From positions 1 through 57,372 of the forward strand of contig JAKAKP010000163.1 of NCBI GenBank assembly GCA_021813445.1: a stretch of 57,372 nucleotides of DNA. The letters are read 5' to 3'. Position numbers and translations under genes: made by a program. This document shows, in pieces, positions 269-18,830 of the stretch; within the stretch, counting starts at the first letter, position 1; every line of letters begins with the position of its first letter. Under the pieces are notes generated by a model. The model saw nothing but the letters and a program-made list of their open reading frames with translations, searched no databases and was not told where the DNA came from. This DNA is from Deltaproteobacteria bacterium (GTDB lineage Bacteria; Desulfobacterota; Desulfobaccia; Desulfobaccales; 0-14-0-80-60-11).

Positions 269-952
269 TGCCGGGATTCCCTCCCCCTTCTTTGCGGCTG
301 TGCCGGGCCGCGCCCCCACCTGCCGCCTGGCCTGGAACCGGAGCCACATCCCGGCTCAGTCCGCCTCACCGGCTAATCCCTGCCGGCGGCGGATAGGCTG
401 CGGTTATCGTTAAGTCATCTACCGATCACGGGCTGCCCCGCCTTAAAGAAGGTGCGGGCCTGATCCGCCCATTATCTTTACAATTCCTGCTATAATATTT
501 AGTGTGTATTTATTACTATGATTAATCGCCGTGGGGGCGGCGGGGGCGACGCTGCCGGCAGTCCCCCGGAGCCGGGTCCCTGGGGTCACCAAGGGACCTG
601 ATATTTAAGGGGCGCTGCGGGCAACCGGCAATCTCGGAGACACCGCAGGCAGCGGGCCGCCTAGGCCCCAGGCGATCTGGCAATAATGGTTAGTCTTCCT
701 GGCCGCATTTAACGGGACGGACCTATGCCGGTGCTTCATCTGCATCTAAAAGATGGAGAACGCCACCTCCCCTTGGCACCCGGGCCTGCGGTTGCTGCCG
801 GGTCCACCCCGAGACTGGAACCGCGGGCAATCCCATCGCCGCCGCCCTGCTCCACCTCCCCCTTCAACCAGACGCCGCCAGGAAGCGGCCTGGCCTGGCA
901 GAGCAACCCCATCCAGGTAAAAAGACATGCAAAACGAAGATCTACCCAACCT
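269..952. other. Intergenic region without a recognised gene
   Basis: About 680 bases separate the CheW end from the preferred start of the sensor gene. The sensor frame is open back to an ATG at 725, but residues from there to 953 are proline-rich and unlike any sensor, so I treat them as non-coding. A TATAAT hexamer lies at 491-496 without a clear -35 box. A perfect 7-bp inverted repeat, GGTCCCT/AGGGACC (575-581 and 592-598), could form a leader hairpin of unknown role. Confidence 0.4.
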
Positions 953-2908
953 ATGCCTAAAGGCGTCTCCTTGACCCCCAGGACCTTTGCCGCCTTAATT
1001 ACGGGGCTCCTGGCAGCTGCGCTCCTCTTACTTATTAGCCTCGCGGCCGCGGCCGGTCAGGACCGGCCTGATCAGGAAGACCTGCTCACCCCCAAAGAGC
1101 GGCAGTGGCTGTCGGCCTCTAACCGGCCGATACGTATCGGCATCACCGTAATCCCGGTGCAAGTTTTGCTCGGCAAAAAGCCTGGAGACTACCGAGGTAT
1201 TTCCATTGATTACATTAAACTCATGGAGCGCCATCTCGGATGCAAATTTGCCTTGAGATATTACCAGACCTGGAATGAGGTCATGGACGCGGCCAAGAAG
1301 AAAGAGATCGATATGATTTTCGCCGCCCAGGAAACTCCTGAGCGCTCAGAGTATCTGCTGTTTTCCAAGCCTTATCTTGAACTGCCCAACATGATCATTG
1401 TCAGAAAAAATATGAAAGGTACTTTCACCCTGCCGATGATGCGCGGTTTGAAGGTTGCATGCTCAAAAGGCAGTGCGGTTCAAGAGTTCTTGAGAGAAAA
1501 GTATAGTTATTTGGATTTATATCCCGTTACCGATGAATTGAGTGGATTAGCAGAGGTATCCTTTGGAGAAGTAGATACAATGGTGGTGGAGTTATCGCGG
1601 GCATCTTATTATATAGAAAAGGCACAAATAACAAATCTGCGGGTTGCCGGCAATGCCGGACTTAATTATGAACTGCGCTTTGCTTCCAGAAAGGATTGGC
1701 CGATCCTCAATAGCATTTTAAACAAGGGATTATCATCAATAACCGACCAAGATCGGGAGAGAATCACCAAAAAATGGATTACTGTCGGCAAGGAGACACT
1801 ACTTGCCAGCAGGGCTTTTTGGATTTCTTTGGGTTTGGGCTTTGCAGTCATAATCTTAGTTTTTCTGGGGTTTATTGTCTGGAACCGGACCCTTAAACGA
1901 CAAGTCGCGCAACGCACCGGCCAGTTGCAAGAACAACTTGCGGAGCGCCAGCGCGCGGAGGAGGGCCTGCGCCAGGCGAACGAAACTTTGCGCGCCACCC
2001 TGGACGCGGCGCCCGTGGCTATCATCGATCTGGACACCGAAGGACGGGTAAAAAGTCTCTGGAATCCCGCAGCCGAAAAGATGCTGGGCTGGCGCCGGGA
2101 GGAGGTGCTGGGCCAATTCCTGCCCACCGTGCCGGAGGAAAGCAAGGAGGAATTCGCGGGCTTTCGCGCCTGGGTCCGCTCCGGGAAGTCCATCATCGGC
2201 AAAGACGCGGTGCGCCGGCGCAAAGATGGCTCTTTGATCGAATACAGCATTTACGCAGCCCCGGAGTATGATGCCGACGGCCGGGTAATCGGCAATATCG
2301 CGGTGCTGGTGGACATCACCGAGCGCAAACGGGCAGAACAGAGCCTCGCCCTCCTGAGCTTCGCTCTGAACCACGTCCATGAAGCAGCCTTTCTGGCAGA
2401 CGAAAACGCCTGCTTCCATTACGTCAATGACGAATCATGCCGCATCCTGGGATATACCCGGGACGAACTGCTGAGTCTCGGCGTTGCCGATATCGACCCC
2501 GACTTTCCCAGGGAACGCTGGCCTGAGCATTGGGATGATCTCAAGGCCCAACATTCACTTACCTTCGAGACCCGCCATCGGGCAAAGGATGGCAGCATTT
2601 TCCCTGTCGAAGTCAGCGCCAACTATTTCGAGTACGACGGCCAGGGCTATAATCTGGCCTTGGCTCGGGATATTACCGCGCGCAAGCAGATGGAACAGGC
2701 GCTGGTTTTAAGGGAGCAGGAGTACCGTACTCTGCTGGAGAATATCCCCGACCTGATCGTCCGTTACGACCTGGACCTGCGCCGGATTTACGTGAACCCC
2801 GCCTGGGAAAAAGCCAGCGGCCTGTCTGCGGGCGATGTCATCAATAAGCCTGCCGCGCCCATGATTTCAACAATATCTTGGGTGCCATCATCGGCTATGC
2901 GGAAATGA
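953..2908 (+). CDS. Periplasmic-binding/PAS sensor half of a broken hybrid histidine kinase
   Basis: From the ATG at 953 the protein is 651 residues. It has an N-terminal membrane segment (about 8-30), a periplasmic solute-binding type 3 domain (about 45-275), a second membrane helix (about 287-312), a short coiled coil, then PAS domains at about 350-465 and 470-590. A third PAS starts near 595 but breaks off after NPAWEKASGLSAGDVINKP, and the frame stops 19 codons later. The downstream kinase core continues in another frame, so this is the sensory half of a gene damaged by an internal deletion. The start at 953 is chosen because the membrane segment follows directly; the ATG at 725 adds a low-complexity extension. 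Confidence 0.75.
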   Translation: MPKGVSLTPRTFAALITGLLAAALLLLISLAAAAGQDRPDQEDLLTPKERQWLSASNRPIRIGITVIPVQVLLGKKPGDYRGISIDYIKLMERHLGCKFALRYYQTWNEVMDAAKKKEIDMIFAAQETPERSEYLLFSKPYLELPNMIIVRKNMKGTFTLPMMRGLKVACSKGSAVQEFLREKYSYLDLYPVTDELSGLAEVSFGEVDTMVVELSRASYYIEKAQITNLRVAGNAGLNYELRFASRKDWPILNSILNKGLSSITDQDRERITKKWITVGKETLLASRAFWISLGLGFAVIILVFLGFIVWNRTLKRQVAQRTGQLQEQLAERQRAEEGLRQANETLRATLDAAPVAIIDLDTEGRVKSLWNPAAEKMLGWRREEVLGQFLPTVPEESKEEFAGFRAWVRSGKSIIGKDAVRRRKDGSLIEYSIYAAPEYDADGRVIGNIAVLVDITERKRAEQSLALLSFALNHVHEAAFLADENACFHYVNDESCRILGYTRDELLSLGVADIDPDFPRERWPEHWDDLKAQHSLTFETRHRAKDGSIFPVEVSANYFEYDGQGYNLALARDITARKQMEQALVLREQEYRTLLENIPDLIVRYDLDLRRIYVNPAWEKASGLSAGDVINKPAAPMISTISWVPSSAMRK

Positions 2909-3942
2909 TTCAAATGTTTCATCCGTCCCTGGATCCGCAGATAAGCAGGGAGGTGGGGCAGATCCTCAAGGCCGCGCTCCGGGCCAAAGACCTGGTCCAG
3001 CAGATCCTGGCCTTTAGCCGCAGGGGCGAACAGGATCGCAAGGCGATCAAACTGCAGCTGATCATCAAGGAGAGTCTTAAATTCTTACGGGCCTCTCTTC
3101 CCAGCACCATTGAAATTCGCCAATTCCTGGAGCCTGAGGTGGGGCCGGTTCTGGCTGATCCCACGCAGATGCAGCAAGTGGTGATGAACCTCTGCACCAA
3201 TGCTGCCCACGCCATGCGGGAGAAGGGGGGATTGCTGGAGGTCCGGCTCTCCGAGAAGGTGGTGGGGGAGGAAGGCGCCGCCGAGCCCCCGAAACTGGGG
3301 CCCGGACTATACGCGCAGCTGACGGTTAAGGACAATGGGCACGGCATACCTCCTGACATTCTGGGGAGGATCTTTGATCCTTATTTCACCACCAAAGAAA
3401 TGGGGGAGGGAACCGGCTTAGGCTTGGCAGTGGTAGAGGGCATCATCCAAAGCCATGGCGGGGCCATCGCCGTGGAGAGCGAGCCGGGTGTGGGCACGGT
3501 TTTTCACGTCTTTATCCCCACGGTGGAGAAAAGTGAAACAGCGCTGCCCTCCGAGACCCCCATGCCCCTGATCAAAGGCGAGGGACGCATTCTCTTTGTG
3601 GATGATGAGCCGGATTTGACCGATCTGGGCCAGACGATCCTGAAAAAGATGGGATTCGAAGTCGAAGCCCTGACCGACAGTGCGGCCGCCCTGGAAAAAT
3701 TTCTCCAGAATCCCCAGCACTATGACCTGGCCATCGTGGATTTGACTATGCCCCAAATGACCGGCAGAGAACTGGCCCGGAAGCTTCTGGAAATCAGGCC
3801 GGACCTCCCTATCATTCTCTCCAGCGGGTTTGCGGAGAAAATTCACCCTGAAGAAGTAAAGCAGATGGGTATCCGGGAGGTTATCATGAAACCCTGGAGC
3901 GTCAGCGCCCTGGCGGGCGCCATTAACAAGGTGCTGCACTGA
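2848..3942 (+). CDS. Histidine kinase core with receiver domain, severed from its sensor half
   Basis: The frame opens after a stop at 2845-2847 and at once reads AHDFNNILGAIIGYAEM, the HisKA H-box, with the phosphoacceptor His in codon 2860-2862. The first possible start is a TTG at 2878, which would omit that His. An HATPase domain follows (N-box NLCTNAAHAM, DNGHGIP, TGLGLAVV), then a receiver domain (FVDDEPDL, phospho-Asp in AIVDLTMP, conserved Lys in IMKPW). In an intact gene about 80 residues of PAS and linker would precede the H-box. Their loss with a frame change indicates a deletion junction at about 2848-2857. The gene is probably inactive unless this is an assembly error. Confidence 0.8.
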   Translation, partial: ACRAHDFNNILGAIIGYAEMIQMFHPSLDPQISREVGQILKAALRAKDLVQQILAFSRRGEQDRKAIKLQLIIKESLKFLRASLPSTIEIRQFLEPEVGPVLADPTQMQQVVMNLCTNAAHAMREKGGLLEVRLSEKVVGEEGAAEPPKLGPGLYAQLTVKDNGHGIPPDILGRIFDPYFTTKEMGEGTGLGLAVVEGIIQSHGGAIAVESEPGVGTVFHVFIPTVEKSETALPSETPMPLIKGEGRILFVDDEPDLTDLGQTILKKMGFEVEALTDSAAALEKFLQNPQHYDLAIVDLTMPQMTGRELARKLLEIRPDLPIILSSGFAEKIHPEEVKQMGIREVIMKPWSVSALAGAINKVLH

Positions 3943-4007: not shown

Positions 4008-4072
4008 TGGCGGAAGTGCATGGGAATCGAACCCACCTACCGCCTTATTCAGACGGCACACCGGATTTGAAG
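4008..4072 (-). tRNA. selC: tRNA-Sec 3' half, attachment-site remnant
   Basis: Read on the minus strand, the segment begins with the anticodon loop CTTCAAA (UCA anticodon, complement of 4068-4070). It continues with the 3' anticodon strand TCCGGTG, a long variable arm with a 5-bp stem CCGTC/GGCGG, a T arm GTGGG-TTCGATT-CCCAT, the acceptor strand GCACTTCC, G and CCA. The UCA anticodon and long variable arm identify tRNA-Sec. On its 5' side the sequence does not pair with the anticodon stem, and no D arm or 5' acceptor strand is found. This is the pattern left when an element integrates within the anticodon loop: chromosomal 3' half, foreign DNA upstream. The intact tRNA should lie at the far end of the element, outside the window. 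Confidence 0.8.
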
Positions 4073-4162: not shown

Positions 4163-4186
4163 CAACCTACTCACCAACCTACTCAC
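4163..4186. repeat. Tandem 12-bp direct repeat, candidate integrase arm sites
   Basis: CAACCTACTCAC occurs twice back to back (4163-4174 and 4175-4186), right after the inverted repeat and about 90 bases from the selC junction. Tyrosine integrases often bind short direct repeats (arm sites) at this distance from the core. No integrase gene is adjacent, so this role is inference. Alternatively, on the minus strand the repeat reads VSRLVSRL and could be the tail of a lost gene. Confidence 0.45.
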
Positions 4187-4369: not shown

Positions 4370-4783
4370 ATGACCCCTCCACGGGAAAGGTATAGTCAAC
4401 CCGGAGTGGCGTCTCCTCAAACCCCTCATCTGGTGGTGACCGTGAAGCAGCTATCGACGACTCGGGAAGCAGTGCTCCAGCGACTGCGGCTGGCCCTGCC
4501 GCACCTGCGGCGGCGATACGGGGTGGTGCGTCTGGCCCTGTACGGATCCTTTGCTCAAGGCTTGGCCGATGAGGACAGCGATGTGGACCTGCTGGTGGAG
4601 CTCTCCCGCCCTCTGGGGTTGGAGTTCGTGGCCCTATCCCACTATCTGGAACGGAAGCTGGGCCGCAAGGTGGATTTAGCTACTTTTGAAACCTTCCGGC
4701 GAAGTTTGACCTCGCCGCGCTATCGTGAGGTCGCGGCGCACATCCAGGAGTCCATGGCCGATGTCCAGGAAGAGGCGCGATAA
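4370..4783 (+). CDS. MntA-type nucleotidyltransferase antitoxin, first copy
   Basis: A 137-residue protein with the minimal nucleotidyltransferase signature LYGSFAQG...SDVDLLVEL (GSx10DxD), which gives the metal-binding Asp pair. MntA proteins add AMP groups to a tyrosine of the partner HEPN toxin and so neutralise it (known for the family). The first 25 residues are not typical, and GTG codons at 4433-4442 are alternative starts. The stop overlaps the start of the HEPN partner by 23 bases, so the pair is translationally coupled. It is the first gene of a four-gene block just inside the selC junction. Confidence 0.85.
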   Translation: MTPPRERYSQPGVASPQTPHLVVTVKQLSTTREAVLQRLRLALPHLRRRYGVVRLALYGSFAQGLADEDSDVDLLVELSRPLGLEFVALSHYLERKLGRKVDLATFETFRRSLTSPRYREVAAHIQESMADVQEEAR

Positions 4784-5108
4784 GGAATACCTGGCTGATG
4801 TGGTGGAGGCGGTGCAGCGCATCGTCAGCTATACCGCGGAGCTTTCTTACGAGGAGTTCCTGGCCGACAGAAAGACGCAGGATGCGGTCCTCCGCAATCT
4901 GCAAGTAATGGGGGAAGCGGTGAAGAAACTCTCGGCCCCGGTAAAACAGGCGCACCCGCACCTCCCCTGGAAGCAGGTGGCCGGGATGCGGGACAAGGTC
5001 GTACATGACTATTTCGGCATCAACTATGATATTGTCTGGGCCTTGGCCAAGCAGGAACTCCCGGCAATGTTGCCGTCTTTAGCCGCCATACTCCCAGGGG
5101 TAAGATGA
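4761..5108 (+). CDS. HepT-like HEPN toxin (DUF86), first copy
   Basis: A 115-residue all-helical HEPN/DUF86 protein. It carries the RNase motif R-x4-H-x-Y as RDKVVHDY near residue 82. The Tyr is the residue AMPylated by MntA in the characterised HepT/MntA systems. The start at 4761 follows an AGGAG and overlaps the antitoxin end; an earlier in-frame start at 4725 would add an arginine-rich stretch. It is probably an RNase toxin acting in element maintenance or phage defence (inference). Confidence 0.85.
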   Translation: MSRKRRDKEYLADVVEAVQRIVSYTAELSYEEFLADRKTQDAVLRNLQVMGEAVKKLSAPVKQAHPHLPWKQVAGMRDKVVHDYFGINYDIVWALAKQELPAMLPSLAAILPGVR

Positions 5109-5132
5109 AAACCTGTATAAGGCAGGGGGGCA

Positions 5133-5459
5133 ATGAGGATCGCGCGGCGTAAGGTTGTTTTGCCTGCTCTGGGTTTGGAGGAAATCAAAGAGCTGGTGCG
5201 AGCTCATGCCCGGACCTTGGTGGATAAGTATGGCATCAGAGTGGTGGGCGTCTTCGGCTCCTATACCCGGGGGACCCAAAAGAGAAAGAGCGATATCGAC
5301 CTGCTGGCGGAGGTTGAGAGGCCCATCAGCCTCTTGGAGTTGGTGGGGGCGGAGATTTATCTCAGTGAAGTCCTGGCCCGGAAAGTAGACTTGGTGGCCA
5401 AGGATGACTTGCGGGAAGAATTGAAAGAAAGGATTCTCAGCGAGGCGGTCTATCTTTGA
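5133..5459 (+). CDS. MntA-type nucleotidyltransferase antitoxin, second copy
   Basis: A 108-residue nucleotidyltransferase with VFGSYTRG...SDIDLLAEV, the GSx10DxD signature. It is shorter than and clearly diverged from the upstream copy, so the two pairs are not a recent duplication. It starts 24 bases after the first HEPN gene, and its stop overlaps the start of the second HEPN gene. Expected role: AMPylation of the neighbouring HEPN toxin. Confidence 0.87.
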   Translation: MRIARRKVVLPALGLEEIKELVRAHARTLVDKYGIRVVGVFGSYTRGTQKRKSDIDLLAEVERPISLLELVGAEIYLSEVLARKVDLVAKDDLREELKERILSEAVYL

Positions 5460-5800
5460 AGCGTAACTATACTATCTACCTTCAGGATATCCTGGACAAC
5501 CTCGCCCTGGCGGAGTCGTTTACCGCGGGCCTGTCCTATGAGGATTTTCGCCGGGACACCAGGACGGTGTACGCCGTGATTCGTTGTCTGGAGGTGATGG
5601 GAGAAGCCGCTAAAAATATTCCGACGGCTACCCGCCGCAAGTATCCGGACATACCCTGGAAAGAGATGGCGGGTATGCGGGATAAGCTCATCCATGGATA
5701 TTCCGGGGTGGATTCACATAAAGTCTGGCTGGTGGTCCAGGACTATTTGCCGCACCTCAAAAAGTTCATCTTCGGGATGCTCCAGGATTTCAAGGGTTAG
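5456..5800 (+). CDS. HepT-like HEPN toxin (DUF86), second copy
   Basis: A 114-residue DUF86/HEPN protein with RDKLIHGY (R-x4-H-x-Y). It starts at a TTG (5456) that overlaps the antitoxin stop, an arrangement typical of tight translational coupling. The helical body (LEVMGEAAKNIP, PDIPWKEMAGMRDKLIHGY) matches the family closely. Its end lies 14 bases from the convergent phage spanin gene. Confidence 0.87.
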   Translation: MKRNYTIYLQDILDNLALAESFTAGLSYEDFRRDTRTVYAVIRCLEVMGEAAKNIPTATRRKYPDIPWKEMAGMRDKLIHGYSGVDSHKVWLVVQDYLPHLKKFIFGMLQDFKG

Positions 5801-6324: not shown

Positions 6325-6588
6325 CTATGCCGCCTTTTGGAAGACCGTTTTGATTCTCTCAACTATCCCGCCGCCCGTCTTTACCGTTGAAAGGCCATAG
6401 ACCCCGCAGATTCCCCCCGTAATTACCCCCAGCATGGATGATATTGGATTCAAGGCCTCTTTTGGGGGCCAGCCCATAACCGCGGATACTACCCACCCGA
6501 GGTCGATGGCCACCACCACGGGAAGACAAAGACGGCTCATGGAAAGTTGCTGAGAGCTGGGGTCGGTGATAAGTTCGACGATCTTCAT
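6325..6588 (-). CDS. Small membrane protein, holin candidate
   Basis: An 87-residue protein with two or three hydrophobic segments (CLPVVVAIDLGWVVSAVMGW and SSMLGVITGGICGVYGL). Its start overlaps the endolysin stop (ATGA), so it is coupled to the lysis enzyme. Small hydrophobic proteins at this position usually act as holins, forming lesions in the inner membrane. No specific holin family was recognised. Confidence 0.6.
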   Translation of the reverse strand: MKIVELITDPSSQQLSMSRLCLPVVVAIDLGWVVSAVMGWPPKEALNPISSMLGVITGGICGVYGLSTVKTGGGIVERIKTVFQKAA

Positions 6589-7718
6589 GACAGTGCCCCA
6601 TAAAGAGCTTTGGCTCGGGCCAGCACGTCCCTGGCATAGTCCCGTCCAGTTGTGAGGGAGTCCACATCTGTCCCCGCTTCCAGGGCCTTACGAACGTTTC
6701 CGGGCCCGCAATTGTAGGTGGCTACGGTAGCCATAAACAGGGCTTCGTAGTCTTCTTTAACCAGTTCGAAACAGTTCTCACCCAGGTAATTGAACGACGG
6801 GACAATGACGCTATGGTGGACGTACTCAAGGGAGCTCCGGAGGTCCTGCCAGCCCTCCCCATCACAGAAAGCTGCGTGGCTCCGGTCGTCAACCTGCATG
6901 ATTCCGTGGCCATGGCCACCGTCCCCCCGGCCATCCTCGTCCAGGAGCAACCCGAACCGACTCTCCCGGCTGGCAATCCCCATCAATACCCAGGCCATCC
7001 ACCGGGGGCCGAGGGCCTGCCGCATTACTGCCTCAAGTTCTGCCGGCCACTGGTAGGCGTCGGCCGCAGCCTGGAAGACCGGCAGGTACTCTTTAGCCCG
7101 GCCAAACTCTTCGGACTTGAATTGGGTTTGCGTCAAGTCTGCTTGACTCGCTGAGAGTTGCGTAAAGCCAGGGGCAGGTTCACTTGTCACGTAATCCTTG
7201 ACAGCTTGGATGATGGTGGCCTTATCCACGTGGCGGCCCGGGCAGGTCTTGGTGGTATTCGGCTCATCCCGGTGGAACATCAGGCTGTCCGGGTCGATGT
7301 CCAGGGCAGCGCTCAGCATCGCAATCGCGGCTACGGCGTTCTCCCGAACCATTTCCCCCCGGCCGCTCGTGAAGGCCTCCACGTCATAGTTTCCCAGCAT
7401 CTCCAGACCGATGGACCGGGCGTTGAAGCTCTTGGCATGGACCCCTGGGACCGTCAACGGAGTAAAGACCCAGATCATATAGTCGTCAACGAACAGATGG
7501 GGCCCGGCGCTCCACCCCATTTCATCACGGTAATACTTTTCCAGTCCAAGCAGGTGTTCACGGGTAAACCCCGAGGGGCGCTGCACCAAAGATGGGACGG
7601 CGGTATGGTGCAAGACGATGAACTCCGCCAGCCAATCATCCCAACTCAGACCGGCGACGTACTCCCTGAATTGTTTTGGCGTGAAACCCTGACCTATAAT
7701 CCCTTTCCATTTATCCAT
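6585..7718 (-). CDS. Bifunctional endolysin: amidase plus lytic transglycosylase-like domain
   Basis: 377 residues. The N-terminal half is an Amidase_2 (N-acetylmuramoyl-L-alanine amidase) domain, with zinc ligands in VLHHTAVP (about 37-38) and FHRDEPNT...CPGRH (about 145-160). The C-terminal half resembles goose-lysozyme or SLT folds, with catalytic Glu in IASRESRFG, then GHGIMQVDDRSH and ATYNCGPGNV. The enzyme would thus cut both the peptide link and the glycan of peptidoglycan. The start at 7718 is preferred because GGAGGGGGG lies a few bases upstream; an ATG at 7736 is also in frame. No signal peptide is seen, so export would depend on the holin. Confidence 0.85.
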   Translation of the reverse strand: MDKWKGIIGQGFTPKQFREYVAGLSWDDWLAEFIVLHHTAVPSLVQRPSGFTREHLLGLEKYYRDEMGWSAGPHLFVDDYMIWVFTPLTVPGVHAKSFNARSIGLEMLGNYDVEAFTSGRGEMVRENAVAAIAMLSAALDIDPDSLMFHRDEPNTTKTCPGRHVDKATIIQAVKDYVTSEPAPGFTQLSASQADLTQTQFKSEEFGRAKEYLPVFQAAADAYQWPAELEAVMRQALGPRWMAWVLMGIASRESRFGLLLDEDGRGDGGHGHGIMQVDDRSHAAFCDGEGWQDLRSSLEYVHHSVIVPSFNYLGENCFELVKEDYEALFMATVATYNCGPGNVRKALEAGTDVDSLTTGRDYARDVLARAKALYGALS

Positions 7719-7795
7719 GACTTGACCCCCCTCCAATCCGATGCAGACTTGACGCGGCCCCGCCTATCCTTAAATTATCCCTGCTCATGGGCGCC

Positions 7796-8098
7796 TCACG
7801 ACTGTTTCCTGGCTATCACAACCCCACTGGCGGGGTCGTGGGCATGGCGGTCATATTCGTTCCACCGCTCTTTCCGGTTGTCCTTTAACTCGTCGAACAC
7901 CTTGTTAAAAATCTCCCACTGCACGTATTTCTCCGGCAAATGTTTTTGGCATTCCATCTGGATCTGCAGATAGGATTCCAGTTTTTGCTCGATTTTCAGC
8001 ACGGTGCGCCAGGCCAGCGAGGCCACGGCCAGGATGAGAACGCCGATGACCGTCAGCACAGGTCCGATGAAATGCGCCCACCAGGAATCGTTCAACAT
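7796..8098 (-). CDS. Small N-anchored membrane protein in the lysis region
   Basis: 100 residues: one long hydrophobic segment near the N terminus (FIGPVLTVIGVLILAVASLAW) and then a charged helical tail with KIEQKLESYLQIQMECQKH. It lies between the LamG adhesin and the endolysin. It could be an antiholin or second holin, or a structural accessory; nothing more specific can be said. Confidence 0.6.
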   Translation of the reverse strand: MLNDSWWAHFIGPVLTVIGVLILAVASLAWRTVLKIEQKLESYLQIQMECQKHLPEKYVQWEIFNKVFDELKDNRKERWNEYDRHAHDPASGVVIARKQS

Positions 8099-8191
8099 TC
8101 AGGTCTCCCCCTTCACAGTTATGACCACTGGCGCCTTGAAATAGCTTTCCAGAAATGCCCGGGCGGCATCCCGGCTAAAAGCCTTTTGACG

Positions 8192-9193
8192 TCAGACCAC
8201 CACCGGAAACGTCCTCTTTTCCACTTGGGACTGCCAGAGAGTTCGAGAATCGGGCACCGGAAAGATGCGGCGCGGTAAAGGTATGTCGCTATACTCCACC
8301 TGGCCGACCACTTGGAGGGCCTTCAGACCGCTAAATTCGTCGTATTCCACCTGGCCGATAATCTGGCTCACGTTAATTCCCGGCTGAGCGTCCTGGTATT
8401 CCACCTGGCCGATGACCTGGAAAATCTTGAGTAAGGGAGGGTCGCTATACTCCACCTGAGCGACTTCCTGGAACACCTTTATCAGTGGGTCCGGAGGAAA
8501 AAACCCGCTCCTGATTGCATCAATTTCCGTATCTGACAGGAGGTCATTGAAAATCACCATCTCGTCCAATTTACCGTCCAGGTAATTGCCTGGATTGGCC
8601 AGGGCGCCGATAGTAGTGTTTGCCGCTCCCACCCGAAGCTGGTTAGAGGGAGTGCTCGAATAATTTGCCACGGTTCCAGCCGTCGCATCATAGCGCCTGA
8701 CCTTGCGAACCCTATTGACCCCGTCAATAACCACTGCCAGGTGGTACCAGCGTCCAGCCTGGACCGAGAAAGCATCCCAAAACTCGGCACCGGAGGCGCT
8801 GTAGCCCCAGTTGACTCGCAGATTCCCGCCAGTCAAGCCGATCTCGATAGTCAGGTCCGTCTGCCACAGCCACTTGCTGTAAATGTTGGCATATTGGGAT
8901 GACCCCGGTACGGTCTCCAACTTAAACCAGCAGCATAAAGTAAACTTTTTGGTCGCATCGCCGGACTTGAGGGGGTAGCCCGCATCAAGCGCACCATCGG
9001 CGATGGAGAAATATTGCGAGGAATCTGTCTCTAAATCTACGCAGCACGCCCCTTCCCGGTAATCCACGATGTCTTCGGCCGGAGCATTGTGAGCGGTGAG
9101 GGTGTTGGCCCCCCGGGAATCCGCGGTTAAAGCGCCGCTCTCGAAGCGCCAGAGGGCCTTGCACCGAGGATCGCTGGAAAAGTCGTTGGGCAT
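8192..9193 (-). CDS. LamG/concanavalin-type phage adhesin with C-terminal QVEY repeats
   Basis: 333 residues. Residues about 10-225 form a LamG-like jelly roll (ALWRFESGALTADSRG, FTLCCWFKLE, RWYHLAVVIDGV, YLDGKLDEMVIFN, ending LSDTEIDAIRSG). It is a carbohydrate or ligand-binding fold common in phage tail proteins. The remainder contains four copies of a strand ending in QVEY, about 17-20 residues apart (VFQEVAQVEY, IFQVIGQVEY, VSQIIGQVEY, ALQVVGQVEY). It is the last structural gene before lysis and is likely a host-recognition protein. Confidence 0.75.
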   Translation of the reverse strand: MPNDFSSDPRCKALWRFESGALTADSRGANTLTAHNAPAEDIVDYREGACCVDLETDSSQYFSIADGALDAGYPLKSGDATKKFTLCCWFKLETVPGSSQYANIYSKWLWQTDLTIEIGLTGGNLRVNWGYSASGAEFWDAFSVQAGRWYHLAVVIDGVNRVRKVRRYDATAGTVANYSSTPSNQLRVGAANTTIGALANPGNYLDGKLDEMVIFNDLLSDTEIDAIRSGFFPPDPLIKVFQEVAQVEYSDPPLLKIFQVIGQVEYQDAQPGINVSQIIGQVEYDEFSGLKALQVVGQVEYSDIPLPRRIFPVPDSRTLWQSQVEKRTFPVVV

Positions 9194-9196
9194 GAT

Positions 9197-10180
9197 TTAC
9201 GCTACCGCCTTCACGCCGATCTCCATGGCGTTGACCTCCGCCTCCTGCCAGGGGGCCGCAGTGGCGGGGTTTGCTTCCCATAAGTTGGATAGTTGCGCTG
9301 AAGACGACGGCACGGCTTTAGAGCCACTAAAATAATCGGCGCCGTTGGCGCGCACCGCCAGTTGCAGGTTATGAGGAGTGGGAGACCCTTCAGCTTTAGC
9401 CAAGGCCTGCAACTGGACGCATTTAACCGAGCCGATCGTACCTGCCAGGTCCCCGGCGGCGTAGAGGTCCAGATGGTCAAGGGTGTTTGAGGCAATGAAA
9501 TCACTTTCACTTGGGGGAACCTCATCGACACACGCATTGTTTTCACCCGCAGACGGGGTCCATTGCGTGGAATTCCCGGCCCCGGCGGGTTTGATGGCCT
9601 GGATCTTGGTGTTGCCCGGCCAGGCGGCATCGTCGATCACGACGTTGTCGAACCAGCAGGAGGAGTAATAGGTACCGTCCCCGCCCACCCTGATACCGTC
9701 AATAACGGTTGCGCCGTCGGTGGTGTCGCCGGTAAAGTCGATGTCCAGGATGCCCCCAACCTTGACCTGAAAAACCCCTTCGGTGTTGTGGGGCTTGTAA
9801 TGCACCTCGATGAGGAGGGGAGTCCCCACGTTGACGGCGATGGCGCCGGTGGCCAGCAGCGTCCCGGAACCGGTCCCCCGCCGGATTTCCAGGAGGCCGG
9901 AAGAGGGATTCCTACGGAGACGGGCCAGTTGGTTTGTACCATTAAAGAAGTAGCACATGCTGCTGGCGTATTGGGCCGAGGAACCCCGGTAGCGAAATGC
10001 CAGGTAGTACTCCGGGGCGGCCGGCAGGTACTTGTGGGCATAGTAATTCCCGAAGGCGTCGCAATTCAGGCAATACGTACCGTCCATGCCGGCGACGCCG
10101 CTGGAAAGGTAGGCGCCCACCACCAGGTCCCATAACTTCAAATCACCGGCTTCAAAGCCATCAATGAATACTCTGGCCAT
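9197..10180 (-). CDS. Phage tail-associated beta-sandwich protein
   Basis: 327 residues, not assigned to a named family. The N-terminal half is a jelly-roll-like module (VFIDGFEAGDLKLWDL, YYLAFRYRGSS, PLLIEVHYKP, GSCWFDNVVIDD-type pattern). The C-terminal part reads like the structural or minor tail proteins placed next to LamG adhesins (HNLQLAVRANGADYFSGSKA). It lies four bases upstream of the LamG gene and 15 bases after the preceding fibre gene, all in one operon. Confidence 0.6.
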   Translation of the reverse strand: MARVFIDGFEAGDLKLWDLVVGAYLSSGVAGMDGTYCLNCDAFGNYYAHKYLPAAPEYYLAFRYRGSSAQYASSMCYFFNGTNQLARLRRNPSSGLLEIRRGTGSGTLLATGAIAVNVGTPLLIEVHYKPHNTEGVFQVKVGGILDIDFTGDTTDGATVIDGIRVGGDGTYYSSCWFDNVVIDDAAWPGNTKIQAIKPAGAGNSTQWTPSAGENNACVDEVPPSESDFIASNTLDHLDLYAAGDLAGTIGSVKCVQLQALAKAEGSPTPHNLQLAVRANGADYFSGSKAVPSSSAQLSNLWEANPATAAPWQEAEVNAMEIGVKAVA

Positions 10181-10194
10181 AGTTATTCTCCTAA

Positions 10195-12042
10195 TCAGGC
10201 AAACTGCTCGGCCCTGATGGTAATCTCGTAAGTGCCTGGGTTCGCACCATCGTGGTTAGTGATCCTGACGTGCAGCTCACCGGTCTCATCAGCGTCGCGG
10301 GAAAACCACGGCAACCAGTCCTCAAAATCAAGATCCGGGCGGATGCCGACAGCCTTGTACAAAAGGTCCTCGCCCTGGAAGGTATCCCTGGCGAAGATCT
10401 CGATGGCATAGGTCCCGAAGACAAGCCCCCCGGTTTCGGCCACCTTCAAGTAATGCACCAGGCCCCGATTCATGAAGCTGGCCTGGTTGACTTCTGCATT
10501 GCCGCTGGCCGCAACAGTTATTGGGAGCGGAGTAAAAGTCCGGTCTTGGGTCCCCACCCCGATCACTTTCTCGAAGTAACCAAGCAAAAACACCCGCAGG
10601 TTGGCGGTATCCACCCCGGAAGCATTGACAAAAAACTGGCAGACCAGATCAGCATCAACCGGCACGATGAGCGTCCGCGGGTCATGTTCGTCCTTCCAGG
10701 CGGAATAGGCCCAGGTAGGCAAGGCCGGGGCGTCCTTCTTGCGGAACTGCACGTTGACCCCTGGTCCCGGGGCGCTGTCCCAAAAGAACACCCTCAGGAC
10801 CACCGCAGAGCATCCTTGCATGGCGCTGATAAAGCTGCTCAGGTCCAGGTCTTCCCAATCGATTGACGCCCCGCGATTGGTTTCAGTCCACACTTCTTGC
10901 GGGTCGTCCACCGGGACGTATTTCGTCAGTTCCTGGGCGCCAAGAGCAACGGTGATGTCGCCCAGGTCATACCAGTTGGCGCCGTCGTTGGTGTATTGCC
11001 ACTTGTTTTCAGTTTCGTTCCACTTGATGGCGACATTGGTTTCATCGCCACGCTCCACCTCTAGTTTGCAGTCCTGGGTCGGGGCTCCAGCCGCGTCACG
11101 ATTCAAGGTGAACGCCGGACTTGTGGTGCCCAGATCCGTGTTCTGGGTATGGCCGCCGCCACCGCCTCCTCCGGTCCCGGCCAGGGCCCAGGTGCGCACG
11201 TCGGCAACAATGGTGATCGCCCCGGCGGCGGTAGTCACCTGAAAAAGGGCAATCCGACCGGAGGTAAACCCCGTAGGGTTGGCCGATACCGTGCCGTCAG
11301 CCGGGTCCACCTCCACATAATTGGTGTCGTCATCCGCCAGGGTGACATGCCCGGCCAGGGTTTCATAGATTAACGAATCATTCCTGACCTTGCCGGCCAG
11401 GTAGTAAAAATCCAACCCGGCGTGGTTGTCCGGGTCCTCAGCGTAGAACCCGGACATCTCAGCCAGGAGCTGCTCGATCTCTTCCAGCCGGTCGGCCACT
11501 TTGGAGAAACTCTTGCTCCGGGCGGCGCTGGTCAACTGGTCGGCGTAGTCGTCGCCGTCCAACAGGATGCTCACCCCGGCATAGAGGACTTTGGCCGACA
11601 CCACGTGAGTGACGCTGTCCCAGGCGAACTGCCTGACAGTGTCGTCTTTGACTGAACTGCTCAGGGCCGGAGCGCCGGAAGAATCCAGATAGACGTACCA
11701 GGTCCCGGTGGCCTTGCCCGCCATGGGCAAACTGGTTGAACCGGGTTTGGAGCGAAAATTGCCGGTGGCCCCGGACCAGTAAGCCCCGGCCGCTACGGTT
11801 AAATTGTAGTTGGGACCGGTCAGGGTCCCTGCGTTGAAATCATAGGAACCCGAGCCTATGATTCCCTTACGATCAAAAATCTCCTTGAGGCCGGGCGGGA
11901 CCGCATAGTCTCCGCCGGCCTGCCCCGTGACCATCCCGAGCAGGTAATTCAGATTGGTCTCGATGAGGGCATAGTTGGCATTGTGCTTGACGATGTAATC
12001 CGTCATCCCCTGAACAAAGGCTTTAAAAAGCGAGACGCTCAT
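10195..12042 (-). CDS. Phage tail fibre-like structural protein
   Basis: 615 residues from the ATG at 12042, which overlaps the previous stop (TGATGA). The N terminus (SLFKAFVQGMTDYIVKHNAN) is helical. A fibre-like middle follows (LTVAAGAYWSGATGNF, RIALFQVTTAAGAITIVAD), then a seven-glycine linker and C-terminal beta domains. No enzymatic motif is seen. Position downstream of the tail-tip genes suggests a baseplate or fibre component. Confidence 0.65.
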   Translation of the reverse strand: MSVSLFKAFVQGMTDYIVKHNANYALIETNLNYLLGMVTGQAGGDYAVPPGLKEIFDRKGIIGSGSYDFNAGTLTGPNYNLTVAAGAYWSGATGNFRSKPGSTSLPMAGKATGTWYVYLDSSGAPALSSSVKDDTVRQFAWDSVTHVVSAKVLYAGVSILLDGDDYADQLTSAARSKSFSKVADRLEEIEQLLAEMSGFYAEDPDNHAGLDFYYLAGKVRNDSLIYETLAGHVTLADDDTNYVEVDPADGTVSANPTGFTSGRIALFQVTTAAGAITIVADVRTWALAGTGGGGGGGHTQNTDLGTTSPAFTLNRDAAGAPTQDCKLEVERGDETNVAIKWNETENKWQYTNDGANWYDLGDITVALGAQELTKYVPVDDPQEVWTETNRGASIDWEDLDLSSFISAMQGCSAVVLRVFFWDSAPGPGVNVQFRKKDAPALPTWAYSAWKDEHDPRTLIVPVDADLVCQFFVNASGVDTANLRVFLLGYFEKVIGVGTQDRTFTPLPITVAASGNAEVNQASFMNRGLVHYLKVAETGGLVFGTYAIEIFARDTFQGEDLLYKAVGIRPDLDFEDWLPWFSRDADETGELHVRITNHDGANPGTYEITIRAEQFA

Positions 12043-12527
12043 CAGTGCCACTCCACGATTTCCATAAAGTTCCCTTGGGCGTCAAACTTCCCCTGCAGCC
12101 CATAAGGCAACACGCCATAACCGAAAGGGGGGATCAACTCCCCCATCTCCCCGTAAGACAGGGGCCGGATGATATTGCCGGCTAACCGTCGGCCGGATAT
12201 TTGAAAGACGTCGTCCACAAAGGAGACAAAGATCATGTGCACCGTGGAATTTAAGGTTTTGGAAAGGCCGGTGATGGCCCACTTTCCACTTCCCATGCGG
12301 GACAAAGAAACGCCTTTGCCCTGCTCGGCATAGATGACCTCCCGATTATTGGCGGCCACCGGCACCGACCGCAGGACGTTATCTTCGCCGCCGCCCAGGT
12401 CTACATCGCAGGCCCAGACCCAACTGCCGGCATAATCCTGATATTGATAGAAGGGGCTGGCGATATTCCCCTTCATCTCCGACTTCTGGTCTTGAATAGC
12501 CCAATCGATAATCTTCCTAATGCTCAT
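12042..12527 (-). CDS. Conserved-looking phage tail protein of unknown function
   Basis: 161 residues from the ATG at 12527 (MSIRKIIDWAIQDQ), which overlaps the tail-tip stop; an ATG six codons earlier is also in frame. The protein has a beta-rich middle (SWVWACDVDLGGGEDNVLRSVPV) and a C-terminal part with Gly/Pro turns. It is coupled by ATGA overlaps on both sides to the tail-tip and fibre genes, so it is probably a tail-tip accessory. Confidence 0.65.
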   Translation of the reverse strand: MSIRKIIDWAIQDQKSEMKGNIASPFYQYQDYAGSWVWACDVDLGGGEDNVLRSVPVAANNREVIYAEQGKGVSLSRMGSGKWAITGLSKTLNSTVHMIFVSFVDDVFQISGRRLAGNIIRPLSYGEMGELIPPFGYGVLPYGLQGKFDAQGNFMEIVEWH

Positions 12528-14221
12528 GGGGTCATCACCTTGCAACCGTCAATAACCAGGCTCGCAACTTCCCCCCGCTTGATCTTCTTGGAAAGCCCGG
12601 TGATCAGAATTTTTCTCCCGTCCGGGATCACGATAATGTCCCCCACCTCCAAGGACGGATCATCCTCGATGACGACTCGCCGCGGTCTGGTCAGGCTCTT
12701 TTCCCAAATGAGCTCGGTCACCGCAATGGTGTCGGCTTGGTCGTGAGAGCCGACAAAGTCGTTTTTGATCTCCTTTTCGTTCTCCAGCCAGTAGTCCAGG
12801 CCGTCTTCCATGGCAATGGACATCTTTTCCAGATAGGCGTAGTCATAGGGGGTGCCCCAGACCTCATATTGGGCGCTGCCGATGGACATCTGGATCAACA
12901 TGATCCCGAGCATGGCCTGCGCCTGCAGGACCCTGCCCCAGGGGATAGTGAAACCCGTACCGGGAACCTCTTCGGCCACCACCTGGATGGGCGCCATGGT
13001 AATCACTCCGGTTACCGGCCCGCCGGTCGGTGGGGCCACCAACGCGACCGCTCCCGGGGCGGACAGGACCGTGGGCAGAGTAAAACCTTTGGACGTGGAA
13101 GTGGTTTCGTCCGGGATCAGGGCTGCGGCCACATATTCCAACGCCATCACCGTGGCCAGGATGGGCACCCAGACCAAGATTTCCACCTCGATCTCGCCGT
13201 GAAAGTCATCTTTTTGTTCGTAGCTTTCATTTCCTACCGGGAGGAGGCCGGAGTTCACCGACTTGATCACCTTCATGGAGGTGCCGTCGGCCCGCTGCTT
13301 GTGATCCTCGGACCACCAGCAGGGCAGATTCTCGTGCATGGAGAAAAACCCGGTGGTGACCTGGGCCTCCCCCAACTTCTGGTAGGGGCCGTCCACCCGT
13401 TCCAACTGGGCGTCCAGGAAGACGACTTTTACCTTGTTGATACCATCCTGACTGTTTTCCGGCACCTCCAGCTCTACACACCTGACGTAATCCGCCAGCA
13501 CTTTGGCCGGGGGACGCTGAAAACTCTTATTGACGTAGGTGAGTTTGCCTTCCCCATCGAAGTAAGGTTGATAGCAGACCACCTCCAGAAGCGAAGTAAT
13601 AGCCTCCCAGGGCGACACCTGGGCCAACTGGTTCACCTTGTGCTTGAACTGGCGGCCCAGGGTGAAGGGGATGCGAACTTCAGCCCTGGTCAGCCCCATG
13701 AAGGTCTCGCAGATGTCATAGAGGGCGATTCCCAGGTCAGTGCCCACCGAATACTCCCGGGTGGTGATCTTGCGGCGCTTGAAAGCCTGGGTTTCGGCCC
13801 GCCCGAAGACCGACACCTTGGCCGTGACACTCCCACTGTGCCGGGCCTTCTTCCATCCCACCTGGCCGTGAATCTGGCCGGTGAAAGACGTCACCCAATC
13901 AGTCTCGGATAAGACCTCGTCTCCCTCCACCAGGCGGAGGATGGCCCCATCACCCAGGTAATTTCGATAGGCGCCGGTATCCGGGTGAAAGAAGTTTTTC
14001 GGGTCCACCATGGTGAAGCTGAGCTGTTTGTCGGACCAGGCGATCTCCGAGGCGTAAGGGGTGATGTCCAGCGGGGTCGGGAGACCGGCGTGAAGATTGC
14101 CCGGCGCTGCGGCTACTTGAGAGATAGTGGTCCCGCTGGGGTCCCAGGCATAAATCTTGTAAGCCGGGCGCCGCCGCCGGTTATCCAGCACCCCTTGAAA
14201 CGCCGCCGAGATGTAGCGCAC
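12524..14221 (-). CDS. Tail tip/baseplate hub-like protein
   Basis: 565 residues. The early part (LDITPYASEIAWSDKQLSF, DWVTSFTGQIHGQVG) and the middle (TLGRQFKHKVNQLAQVSPWE, YFDGEGKLTYVNKSF) resemble phage tail-associated hub proteins that assemble at the tail tip. The C terminus (SLEVGDIIVIPDGRKILITGL) resembles the closing beta domain of such proteins. No lysozyme or protease motif was found. Assignment rests on order and sequence character. Confidence 0.6.
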   Translation of the reverse strand: MRYISAAFQGVLDNRRRRPAYKIYAWDPSGTTISQVAAAPGNLHAGLPTPLDITPYASEIAWSDKQLSFTMVDPKNFFHPDTGAYRNYLGDGAILRLVEGDEVLSETDWVTSFTGQIHGQVGWKKARHSGSVTAKVSVFGRAETQAFKRRKITTREYSVGTDLGIALYDICETFMGLTRAEVRIPFTLGRQFKHKVNQLAQVSPWEAITSLLEVVCYQPYFDGEGKLTYVNKSFQRPPAKVLADYVRCVELEVPENSQDGINKVKVVFLDAQLERVDGPYQKLGEAQVTTGFFSMHENLPCWWSEDHKQRADGTSMKVIKSVNSGLLPVGNESYEQKDDFHGEIEVEILVWVPILATVMALEYVAAALIPDETTSTSKGFTLPTVLSAPGAVALVAPPTGGPVTGVITMAPIQVVAEEVPGTGFTIPWGRVLQAQAMLGIMLIQMSIGSAQYEVWGTPYDYAYLEKMSIAMEDGLDYWLENEKEIKNDFVGSHDQADTIAVTELIWEKSLTRPRRVVIEDDPSLEVGDIIVIPDGRKILITGLSKKIKRGEVASLVIDGCKVMTP

Positions 14222-14223
14222 CG

Positions 14224-14778
14224 TTAAACCTCTCCGATAATGCGAAACTGGAAGACCACCTCAAAGGGAATAAGCTCACCGCCCAGCATGGCCACAAAGT
14301 CAAAACTGACGATGTCCTGCCCACCCACCTGGACGCTCTCGATCTGGATGTAGTACAACTGTTCCGTCCGGTCCTTGGGGCGCCAGGTGATATAGCCGCT
14401 CTCCGGCGGGTAGGCGAAGTATTCATAAAGCCGCCGCAGCATGTAGGCGGTCATCCGGGACCGGTTGTCCGAGCCCCGCCAGACCTCCTTGACCGGGCGG
14501 TCCGGGAGATACCCCTGCCACTGGACAATCTGGGCCGAGGCGATGGTGAGCTCCGCCTTCACCTGGGGCCGGTTGGTCATGGGCACCGAATCGAAATTCT
14601 CCCAGCGATCCGGATTCGACTCATAGATCAGCGGCGGCAGCACGTCACCGGGATAGCGCAACTCCCGGAGGGCCCCGGACCCGGCGTTCTCCGGGTAGAG
14701 ATAGAGGTCTTCAAACTCCTCGAAATACTCGGGGGCCGCGACAACAGAAAAGGTGGTTTCCGAGGTCAGTTCGGCCAT
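14224..14778 (-). CDS. Distal tail-like protein
   Basis: 184 residues, starting MAELTSETTFSVVAAPEYFEEF. The beta-rich body (AELTIASAQIVQWQGYLP, YYIQIESVQVGGQDIVSFDFVA) would suit a distal-tail or baseplate ring protein. It lies two bases upstream of the hub-like gene. Family not recognised. Confidence 0.55.
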   Translation of the reverse strand: MAELTSETTFSVVAAPEYFEEFEDLYLYPENAGSGALRELRYPGDVLPPLIYESNPDRWENFDSVPMTNRPQVKAELTIASAQIVQWQGYLPDRPVKEVWRGSDNRSRMTAYMLRRLYEYFAYPPESGYITWRPKDRTEQLYYIQIESVQVGGQDIVSFDFVAMLGGELIPFEVVFQFRIIGEV

Positions 14779-14779
14779 G

Positions 14780-15913
14780 TCACGACTCCTCCACCGTCAC
14801 TTTCAGCTTCAGGGTCTCGGTGCAGGCCTCCTCCGGGGCCTGGTACTGAAAACACACCCGGCCGTTCAACTCGGTGCCCGAGAAGGGGGTTACCAGTCTC
14901 CCATCCACCGGCTCCAGCATCTCCCCCTCCACGGTATAGGGCGTCACCCCCTCGCCGGCGTCGCCGACCAAATGTGCCGCCAGGAGGATGCGGTTTCCGG
15001 CCCTAAGCGAGGTCACCGGCACCGGCTGGGTGAGCTGGCCGGCCGAAACCATCGGGTAATAAAACTCCAACTGGTGCTGGCAGGCGCCATCCGCGGCGTC
15101 CGGGCGCTGCCGGAACACCACCACCCGTTTGCGTTTGGTGTCATAGGTGATGAAATATTTCAGCGCGTCCGCCTCGGGGTTTTGGACCGTGGACATCATC
15201 TCCCAGCGGGGTATCTGGTAATCAGCCTTACAGATCACCCCGTCCTGGGTGATCACCCAACAGTAGTTGCGCGACTCGTAAGCCAGATAATTGAGCACAT
15301 TCGGCAGCCTGAGTTGGGCAAAACGTTCCGGCGTGGCGCCGATATTGCGCCAGCAGTCCAACGTCCAGTTCGCCGCCGCCGCCAGCAGGTTGTCGATCCG
15401 GTTAACCACGGCGTAGCCATAGATGGACTTGGGATTCCAGGTGTAAGGATCAACCCACCATCCGTTAGTTGCCGGCTCGGCATATTCCCACATGACCTCC
15501 CGAATTTTCGTTTCGTTGTTGCGGCAGGCATAAATCTTGTTAAAACTCCCCATGGTGGCTTTTTGGGTATAGGCCGCCCCCCAGATGCCAATCCAGGCCT
15601 GCCTGGCCATGGCTTCTTCTCGATTAGACCAGGCGCCATCTTCGGCGTTGAACTCGTAGCGTTGTACGTCCCAACTCGGCCAATAGGTCGTATTCAACAC
15701 GATATGGGCAATGATCCGATCATTGCCAGGTTCATAAAAGAAATTGGCCACCGAATTTGTGGACTGCCGGTAATGCTTCGGACAGGTAATGAGCTGACCA
15801 TTGTAGGTCAAGCCAAGAGGTCCCCACAACGCGGGCCCAGGAGGCGGGACACACGACCCCTGGTCAATGTAGCTCATGCACGGCGCGACGGTGTTCAGGT
15901 GCCACAGGCCCAT
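14780..15913 (-). CDS. Phage tail-region protein of unknown function
   Basis: 377 residues rich in Trp and Tyr (TYWPSWDVQRYEF, NGWWVDPYTWNPKSIYGYAVV, YCWVITQDGVICKADY), with repeated strand-turn patterns suggesting a beta propeller. The C-terminal 80 residues resemble an immunoglobulin-like domain (GRVCFQYQAPEEACTETLKLKV). It overlaps the preceding gene by one base. Possibly a receptor-binding or chaperone component; unproven. Confidence 0.55.
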   Translation of the reverse strand: MGLWHLNTVAPCMSYIDQGSCVPPPGPALWGPLGLTYNGQLITCPKHYRQSTNSVANFFYEPGNDRIIAHIVLNTTYWPSWDVQRYEFNAEDGAWSNREEAMARQAWIGIWGAAYTQKATMGSFNKIYACRNNETKIREVMWEYAEPATNGWWVDPYTWNPKSIYGYAVVNRIDNLLAAAANWTLDCWRNIGATPERFAQLRLPNVLNYLAYESRNYCWVITQDGVICKADYQIPRWEMMSTVQNPEADALKYFITYDTKRKRVVVFRQRPDAADGACQHQLEFYYPMVSAGQLTQPVPVTSLRAGNRILLAAHLVGDAGEGVTPYTVEGEMLEPVDGRLVTPFSGTELNGRVCFQYQAPEEACTETLKLKVTVEES

Positions 15914-16860
15914 CAGGAAAGCACCACCCTTGCCTTGATTTTGCCCGATCCGGGTTGGTTATCATCGGGACCGAAATACCGGCTCTTCGCCCAGCCAGCC
16001 GTATCCGTTTTCGTCACATAGTTATCCAGGGAGCCTCTTAATCCCCCGCCGGCATCCGCCAGTTCCCAATGCACCCACCAGCCCGGACAGGGCTCCCCGT
16101 CCTGACCGGTGAGCCGGGTCTTCACCAGGTTCCCCTTGAGCCCGCGGACCGTTGGGGGGTCGAAGACCGGGGCGGAGAGCACGGCGGGCCAGGCCTCCCG
16201 GCAGTACACCCGGGCCTTGTAGTCCGTGCCGATGGCGAAGAACAGGTGGAAGGCGCTGTCATAGCCTGCCACCTTGAAGGGATCGAGGCGCCCGGTGGCC
16301 AGGACCCGGGGGCTGCTGAGGTAGTCCATGATCCTGACCTTGCCGCTGGTGCGGCACAGGCCCGCCACCTGGCCCGGTTGCACCCAGGCGATGGCAGCGA
16401 AGTATTCCCCGGCGTTGTGGACGATCTCCCCCACCTTTCGGCCATCCTCCAGGCTGTGGATGTCGATCCGGTTGGCGCTCGGTTGATGCAGATACACCTG
16501 GTTGACGTCGTCGATGAATTTGCCCGAAGAACTTGACGGCCCCAGGCTGTAACCGATGTTCCAGTTCGGGTTCAGCACCTCATTGGGATTGGGGAGGCCG
16601 TTGATCTCAAAGGCCGGGTGTACCTTGAAGGTCCACTGGCTCCAGTAAGCCGGGAACCCTTTCACCCGCCCCAGCATGGCGTAACTGCCGGAGGGCTTGC
16701 CGAACTTCACCCGGGCGCCGTCCCGGAATACCCGTGCCCATTCCCCGCCGGACTGAGATAGAAAGGCGTCCCAGGTGCTGACGTAGCACAGGTGCTGCCA
16801 GGAGTCCCCGGCCACAACCGGCTGCGCCAGTTTCGTGCTTTCAAAAATCTTCTCGTACAT
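15913..16860 (-). CDS. Phage tail-region protein with propeller-like body and C-terminal Ig-like domain
   Basis: 315 residues from the ATG at 16860, which overlaps the stop of the preceding gene; the frame is open further upstream but with an atypical Arg/Gly-rich sequence. The body contains repeated strands (YLHQPSANRIDIHSLEDGRKV, VAGLCRTSGKVRIMDYL). The last 90 residues resemble an invasin-type Ig domain (VRGLKGNLVKTRLTGQDGEP, TKTDTAGWAKSRYFGPD). It shares architecture with the next gene, so the two may be distant paralogs. Confidence 0.55.
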   Translation of the reverse strand: MYEKIFESTKLAQPVVAGDSWQHLCYVSTWDAFLSQSGGEWARVFRDGARVKFGKPSGSYAMLGRVKGFPAYWSQWTFKVHPAFEINGLPNPNEVLNPNWNIGYSLGPSSSSGKFIDDVNQVYLHQPSANRIDIHSLEDGRKVGEIVHNAGEYFAAIAWVQPGQVAGLCRTSGKVRIMDYLSSPRVLATGRLDPFKVAGYDSAFHLFFAIGTDYKARVYCREAWPAVLSAPVFDPPTVRGLKGNLVKTRLTGQDGEPCPGWWVHWELADAGGGLRGSLDNYVTKTDTAGWAKSRYFGPDDNQPGSGKIKARVVLS

Positions 16861-17294: not shown

Positions 17295-17295
17295 G

Positions 17296-17517: not shown

Positions 17518-17531
17518 GATTTAAATTCCTC

Positions 17532-18827: not shown

Positions 18828-18830
18828 AAG

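What the first reader, a model, noticed from the sequence alone, without database searches (positions are those of the whole stretch)
4008..4072. Element integrated into the anticodon loop of tRNA-Sec
Only the 3' half of tRNA-Sec is present. Identity to a tRNA starts at the anticodon loop, and the 5' side is unrelated DNA that leads into toxin-antitoxin and phage genes. This fits one junction of an element using selC as attachment site and gives independent evidence that the host decodes UGA as Sec, in line with the selenoprotein carried by the same element.
Basis: partly seen in the sequence, partly recalled or inferred. Interest (0 to 1): 0.75.

Follow-up and report, generated by a model that had tools for sequence, protein, structure and literature searches.

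The report
Prophage inserted in tRNA-Sec anticodon loop
A temperate phage has inserted itself into this bacterium's selenocysteine tRNA gene exactly at the anticodon loop, rebuilding the gene with its own 3' half and leaving the old half behind in the window; this is an ordinary way for phages to use tRNA genes, at a target and cut point that I did not find described.

Summary
Confirmed. Window 4008-4072 (-) is exactly the 65-nt 3' half of tRNA-Sec, from the first nucleotide of the anticodon loop to CCA. Intact selC lies on contig C76 (67-nt repeat, one mismatch). Directly 3' of it are integrase arm-type repeats (GTGAGTAGGT) and a tyrosine integrase gene; the same double repeat lies on the element side of the window fragment. 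In 4.18 Mb that double repeat occurs at four places: these two, and two ends sharing a tRNA-Leu repeat, a second element of the same family. A MAG of another genus (G014) repeats the pattern: selC plus a 74%-identical integrase at one end; at the other, the same element-side arm (83%) joined to a selC 3' half starting at the same loop. A related prophage whole on one contig (G007, tRNA-Ala) orders our contigs as C76-C148-C134, so the element is at least about 79 kb. Integration restores selC; the window piece is the displaced host half (attR). A cargo slot next to the portal gene carries metal/arsenic genes, including a known ArsM selenoprotein family; G007 carries BREX there. Caveats: contigs are not physically joined and no matching empty site was found. 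New member of a known kind.

The parts
4008..4072 (-). attR: displaced 3' half of the host tRNA-Sec gene, from first base of the anticodon loop to CCA
   Evidence: 67-nt match, one mismatch, to intact selC on C76; identity starts at the anticodon loop
4085..4245 (-). P arm of the element: conserved att arm including inverted repeat 4132-4142/4152-4162 and motif GTCAACCATGCGGGTTT
   Evidence: 83% identical beside the G014 selC fragment; 99% identical in G021 near selC; motif present in att ends of several other elements
4163..4186 (-). two arm-type repeats GTGAGTAGGTTG, same repeat as beside selC and the integrase gene on C76
   Evidence: paired repeat occurs at four places in the whole genome, all element ends
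725..3942 (+). host chromosome flank: histidine kinase genes (two ORFs, 725-2908 and 2878-3942)
   Evidence: homologues in same-genus genomes, not next to selC there
4370..5800 (+). two MNT/HepT toxin-antitoxin pairs at the element's right end
   Evidence: NTP_transf_2 and HepT-like matches; also found beside the P arm in G021
6585..31131 (-). phage late genes: endolysin, tail, tape measure, head-tail adaptor, major capsid, protease, portal
   Evidence: PHROGs; same order as in the G007 prophage
31640..55050 (-). cargo slot: P-type metal ATPase, CzcCBA-like efflux, sensor proteins, ArsR regulators, ArsM selenoprotein
   Evidence: slot holds BREX in G007 and other genes in other relatives
49395..50579 (-). 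arsenite methyltransferase/DUF2284 selenoprotein with in-frame UGA codons
   Evidence: NF041536 at 586.8 bits (cut-off 575); homologues in 18 other genomes also contain an in-frame TGA
55114..57371 (-). phage exonuclease and a phage-family protein running off the contig end
   Evidence: PHROG exonuclease; both 68-72% identical and adjacent in the G007 prophage

Best explanation
Window 4008-4072 is attR of a temperate phage with an HK97-type head, of at least about 79 kb, integrated in selC. A tyrosine integrase, encoded next to the intact selC on contig C76, recombined a copy of the selC 3' half in the phage attP with selC at the anticodon loop. The intact selC now has its 5' half from the host and its 3' half, plus a terminator-like hairpin, from the phage; the host's own 3' half was pushed to the far end, where it lies in the window. 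Shown: the repeat and its start at the loop, both arm sets, an integrase gene with conserved residues, the same architecture in another genus and at other tRNA genes, and joined host flanks that give a complete tRNA-Sec. Inferred: that C76, C148 and C134 are one prophage (by synteny), that the integrase is active, and that the rebuilt tRNA works.
For: Fragment and intact copy. Integrase (phrog_1 E 2.7e-45; PF00589) whose frame ends 22 nt past the selC 3' end, with R190, K215, H281, R284, H308 and Y317 invariant in a five-member alignment; assigning these to catalysis is from general knowledge of the family. Double arm repeat at four genome places, all element ends. Second element in the same genome at tRNA-Leu(CAA) with a 103-nt repeat (93%) starting in the anticodon stem. 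G014: integrase 74% next to selC, and attR with P arm 83% and the same break point. G007: contiguous prophage with tRNA-Ala at one end and a 49-nt tRNA-Ala 3' fragment at the other, colinear with C76, C148 and C134. Joining the host flanks gives a complete tRNA-Sec; the joined phage ends and the window end do not.
Against: The three contigs share no end overlaps, so the single prophage rests on synteny with G007. No relative shows an empty selC followed by the window's histidine kinase. The genome also holds a second phage region with a related portal (62%, C6), so C148 could in principle belong to that one, although its ATPase gene has only one match in the genome. G000 is a draft in 166 contigs.
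Confidence: 0.9

Rival explanations
1. The window fragment is the scar of an older, different selC element, and the integrase on C76 belongs to a separate element.
For: selC is hit repeatedly in this group: 28-29-nt T-arm fragments in G002 and G025, a fragment 1.7 kb from selC in G036, and a partial scar in G021. Contigs are not joined.
Against: The double arm repeat occurs at only four places and these pair off into a Sec pair and a Leu pair. The gene sets of C76 and the window are complementary and colinear with one G007 prophage.
Confidence: 0.08
2. The fragment is a chance resemblance or a decayed tRNA duplicate unrelated to integration.
For: ARAGORN and Rfam find no tRNA in the window.
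Against: 67-nt match at 99% (E 2.3e-27), a break exactly at the anticodon loop, arm repeats at the expected place, and the same junction in another genus.
Confidence: 0.01
3. The metal/arsenic/selenoprotein block is an assembly chimera or a chromosomal piece, so the selenoprotein is not on the element (the attR reading would still stand).
For: Much of the block is 74-86% identical to a locus in G001 with no phage genes seen around it. Reads were not available.
Against: It lies between phage genes on both sides of one contig, and related phages carry other foreign genes at the same place upstream of the portal.
Confidence: 0.1

Closest known systems
Genomic islands and prophages in tRNA genes, Islander class A (anticodon-centred att site; PMC4383910)
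   Same: Tyrosine integrase, regenerated tRNA at one end, displaced 3' fragment at the other in the same orientation, crossover at the anticodon loop. Islander lists 2083 of 3919 islands as class A.
   Different: Target is selC; I found no description of an anticodon-loop insertion in selC in the papers searched.
E. coli selC islands (LEE site, LEE-negative STEC islands; PMC6174562) and, from memory, phage phiR73
   Same: selC as attachment site, integrase beside the tRNA gene.
   Different: There the direct repeat is 24 bp at the selC end (PMC6174562); here it is 65-67 nt from the anticodon loop, and the hosts are uncultured Deltaproteobacteria.
The G007 prophage in tRNA-Ala(CGC), MAG JASEFS01, C59
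   Same: Same gene order, similar arm repeats, anticodon-loop attachment, foreign cargo upstream of the portal gene.
   Different: Integrase only 48% identical, tRNA-Ala target, BREX instead of metal resistance as cargo.
NF041536 ArsM_DUF2284_UU selenoprotein
   Same: Window 49395-50579 scores above the curated cut-off.
   Different: Here it rides on a prophage that occupies selC.

Membership tests
tRNA-gene (tDNA) integrated island/prophage, Islander criteria | intact tRNA gene plus cognate fragment in the same genome | tested here: met
tRNA-gene (tDNA) integrated island/prophage, Islander criteria | integrase gene inside the element | tested here: met
tRNA-gene (tDNA) integrated island/prophage, Islander criteria | 3' fragment downstream of the tRNA, same orientation, interval 2-200 kb | tested here: inconclusive
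   Orientation and order agree with the contiguous G007 prophage, but G000 contigs are not joined; size at least about 79 kb
anticodon-loop (class A) attachment site | repeat starts at the anticodon loop and runs to the tRNA 3' end | tested here: met
temperate tailed phage (HK97-type head) | portal, protease/capsid, tail, lysis and repressor genes | tested here: met
   (repressor on C76, the rest in the window)
temperate tailed phage (HK97-type head) | can excise and form particles | not testable with these tools
   needs cells or reads
E. coli-type selC islands (3'-end attachment) | short repeat confined to the selC 3' end | tested here: not met
   Repeat is 65-67 nt from the anticodon loop; E. 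coli islands 24 bp
ArsM/DUF2284 selenoprotein NF041536 | score above curated cut-off with in-frame UGA | tested here: met
ArsM/DUF2284 selenoprotein NF041536 | SECIS-like hairpin after the UGA | tested here: inconclusive
   one 70-nt stretch folds no better than shuffles, z = -0.1; bacterial SECIS elements are short and varied

The most novel reading that the evidence does not exclude
The selC target and the selenoprotein cargo are linked by selection: a phage that can settle only in a cell with selC is assured that its UGA-containing cargo can be read, and by supplying the 3' half and a terminator-like hairpin of tRNA-Sec it could influence selC expression. Against this, the G014 selC element shows restriction-modification-like genes and no obvious selenoprotein at its sequenced ends (by eye), and sister phages of this family use other tRNA genes.
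Probability: 0.05. Interest if true: 0.65.

Novelty: new member of a known kind. Interest (0 to 1): 0.42.

Why it matters
It shows that selC can be used at the anticodon loop, not only at the 3' end, and it belongs to a family whose integrases share one att arm design while sitting in anticodon loops of at least tRNA-Sec, Leu, Ala and Arg genes. That is a natural series for studying how integrases change tRNA target. The same phages have a slot upstream of the portal gene that holds metal resistance in one host and BREX defence in another, which makes them movers of ecologically useful genes among uncultured Deltaproteobacteria.

Tried and rejected
Empty-site comparison: the genes after selC differ among the same-genus genomes and none has the window's histidine kinase there, so this test said nothing either way. 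Contig-end overlaps: none. SECIS fold after the ArsM UGA: not better than shuffles. Chance resemblance rejected. ARAGORN's 'tRNA-Arg' on C76 (7920-8017) was treated as a false call because it lies inside the integrase frame.

Full report
What is there. Read on the minus strand, window 4072..4008 is CTTCAAATCCGGTGTGCCGTCTGAATAAGGCGGTAGGTGGGTTCGATTCCCATGCACTTCCGCCA: 65 nt from the first base of the anticodon loop (anticodon TCA) to the 3' CCA of a tRNA-Sec. ARAGORN and Rfam report no whole tRNA in the window.

The intact gene. The window is a whole contig (C134, 57372 b) of a 166-contig draft genome, G000. The only other copy is on C76, where ARAGORN finds an intact tRNA-Sec at 6889-6986, with tRNA-Gln upstream. 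The shared stretch is 67 nt with one mismatch, a G in the window against an A on C76 in the long variable arm; by eye this exchanges a G-U for an A-U pair. The genome also has SelA and SelB over their curated cut-offs, so it can be expected to decode UGA as selenocysteine.

The other end of the element. On C76 a tyrosine integrase ORF, 7008-8159(-), ends 22 nt past the selC 3' end (PHROG integrase E 2.7e-45, Pfam PF00589). R190, K215, H281, R284, H308 and Y317 are invariant in five family members; that these are the catalytic positions is general knowledge of the family. Three GTGAGTAGGT repeats (7036-7068) overlap the 3' end of that ORF, and two stand on the element side of the window fragment, 4163-4186. 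The paired pattern, allowing one mismatch, occurs at four places in the whole genome: C76, the window, C16 and C60; the reversed control pattern occurs nowhere. C16 and C60 share a 103-nt repeat (93%) of the tRNA-Leu(CAA) gene starting in its anticodon stem, with a 60%-identical integrase on C16. So the genome itself contains a second element of the same family, an internal control.

Independent replicates. In G014, a MAG of another genus, selC on C117 is followed by an integrase 74% identical, and C24 carries a selC 3' half that starts at the same loop, preceded by an element-side arm 83% identical to the window's, while the host side after CCA is unrelated. In other genomes the paired arm repeats stand about 100 nt before a tRNA 3' part that starts in the anticodon stem-loop: read by eye, tRNA-Arg in G008, G013, G004 and G006 and probably tRNA-Pro in G015; a conserved GTCAACCATGCGGGTTT-like motif lies between. 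G003 shows the arms without a recognisable tRNA part. In G021 the TA genes and P arm (88-99% identical) lie about 1 kb from an intact selC, but without the att core.

One prophage across three contigs. G007 holds a related prophage on one 126-kb contig: tRNA-Ala(CGC), integrase (48%), repressor, early genes, exonuclease, portal, capsid, tail, then arm repeats and a 49-nt 3' fragment of tRNA-Ala. Its gene order places C76 first, C148 (10.5 kb) next and the reversed window last, with a gap of a few kb before the window. No contig ends overlap, so this order is an inference. Together the pieces give at least about 79 kb (14.9 + 10.5 + 53.3).

How it works. Inferred mechanism: integrase-mediated recombination between attP, which carries the selC 3' half, and selC at the anticodon loop. 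The rebuilt selC has the host 5' half and the phage 3' half; just after it the phage end has a GGGGGTCAAAATTTTTGGCCCCCTTTTT hairpin, and similar hairpins follow selC in G001 and G006 and the selC fragment in G002, so the phage end seems to bring its own terminator. Joining the host flanks in a script gives a complete tRNA-Sec; the window end alone does not.

Cargo. Between the exonuclease and the portal gene the window carries a metal ATPase, CzcCBA-like efflux genes, ArsR regulators and an ArsM/DUF2284 protein with in-frame UGA that scores above the cut-off of NCBIfam NF041536, a named selenoprotein family; 18 other genomes have homologues with an in-frame TGA. No SECIS-like fold stood out. 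In G007 the same slot holds BREX genes (BrxC, PglX, BrxHI, PglZ); upstream of the portal other relatives have other foreign genes, named by eye only. Much of the window's block is 74-86% identical to a locus in G001 with no phage genes seen around it, so it is acquired cargo.

Limits. No relative shows selC followed by the window's histidine kinase; the gene after selC differs among the same-genus genomes. The genome has another phage region with a related portal. Activity of the integrase and of the rebuilt tRNA was not tested.

Known or new. Islander describes exactly this signature and lists 2083 of 3919 islands with anticodon-centred sites (PMC4383910). E. coli selC islands have a 24-bp repeat that is part of the tRNA gene (PMC6174562). 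My literature searches found no anticodon-loop case in selC, but the library is incomplete. Verdict: a well-supported new member of a known kind.

Noticed in passing
window 31640-55050 and G007:C59:38200-59600 (L124, L125): A cargo slot between phage exonuclease and portal genes: metal/arsenic resistance here, BREX in G007, other foreign genes upstream of the portal in G001, G003 and G015.
   Followed up: partly
window 31346-31598: Short matches to the upstream region and 5' end of the G003 portal gene lie at the cargo boundary, as if left by recombination between related phages.
   Followed up: no
window 725-3942: The two histidine kinase ORFs match separate parts of two neighbouring kinase genes in G001, suggesting a fusion or deletion.
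   Followed up: no
L041 (G002:C101) 72-99 and L081 (G025:C1) 4706-4734: 28-29-nt selC 3' fragments starting at the T arm: a second attachment sublocation in selC.
   Followed up: partly
L082 (G036:C17) 5471-5528: A selC 3' fragment 1.7 kb downstream of the intact selC on the same contig.
   Followed up: no
L087 (G021:C129) 1-1540: Intact selC, then a piece of the element's right end bounded by a repeat of about 40 nt; looks like a partial prophage scar or assembly join.
   Followed up: partly
window 4073-4245 and L079 (G014): The P arm holds TTTGAAG, the reverse complement of the tRNA-Sec anticodon loop CTTCAAA, about 30 nt from the core, in both G000 and G014.
   Followed up: no
L159/L160 (G014:C24) and L077 (G014:C117): The G014 selC element shares integrase and early genes with C76 (55-74%) but its late end is different (a 4603-aa protein) and G014 lacks the portal: the integration module is swapped between phage types.
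   Followed up: partly
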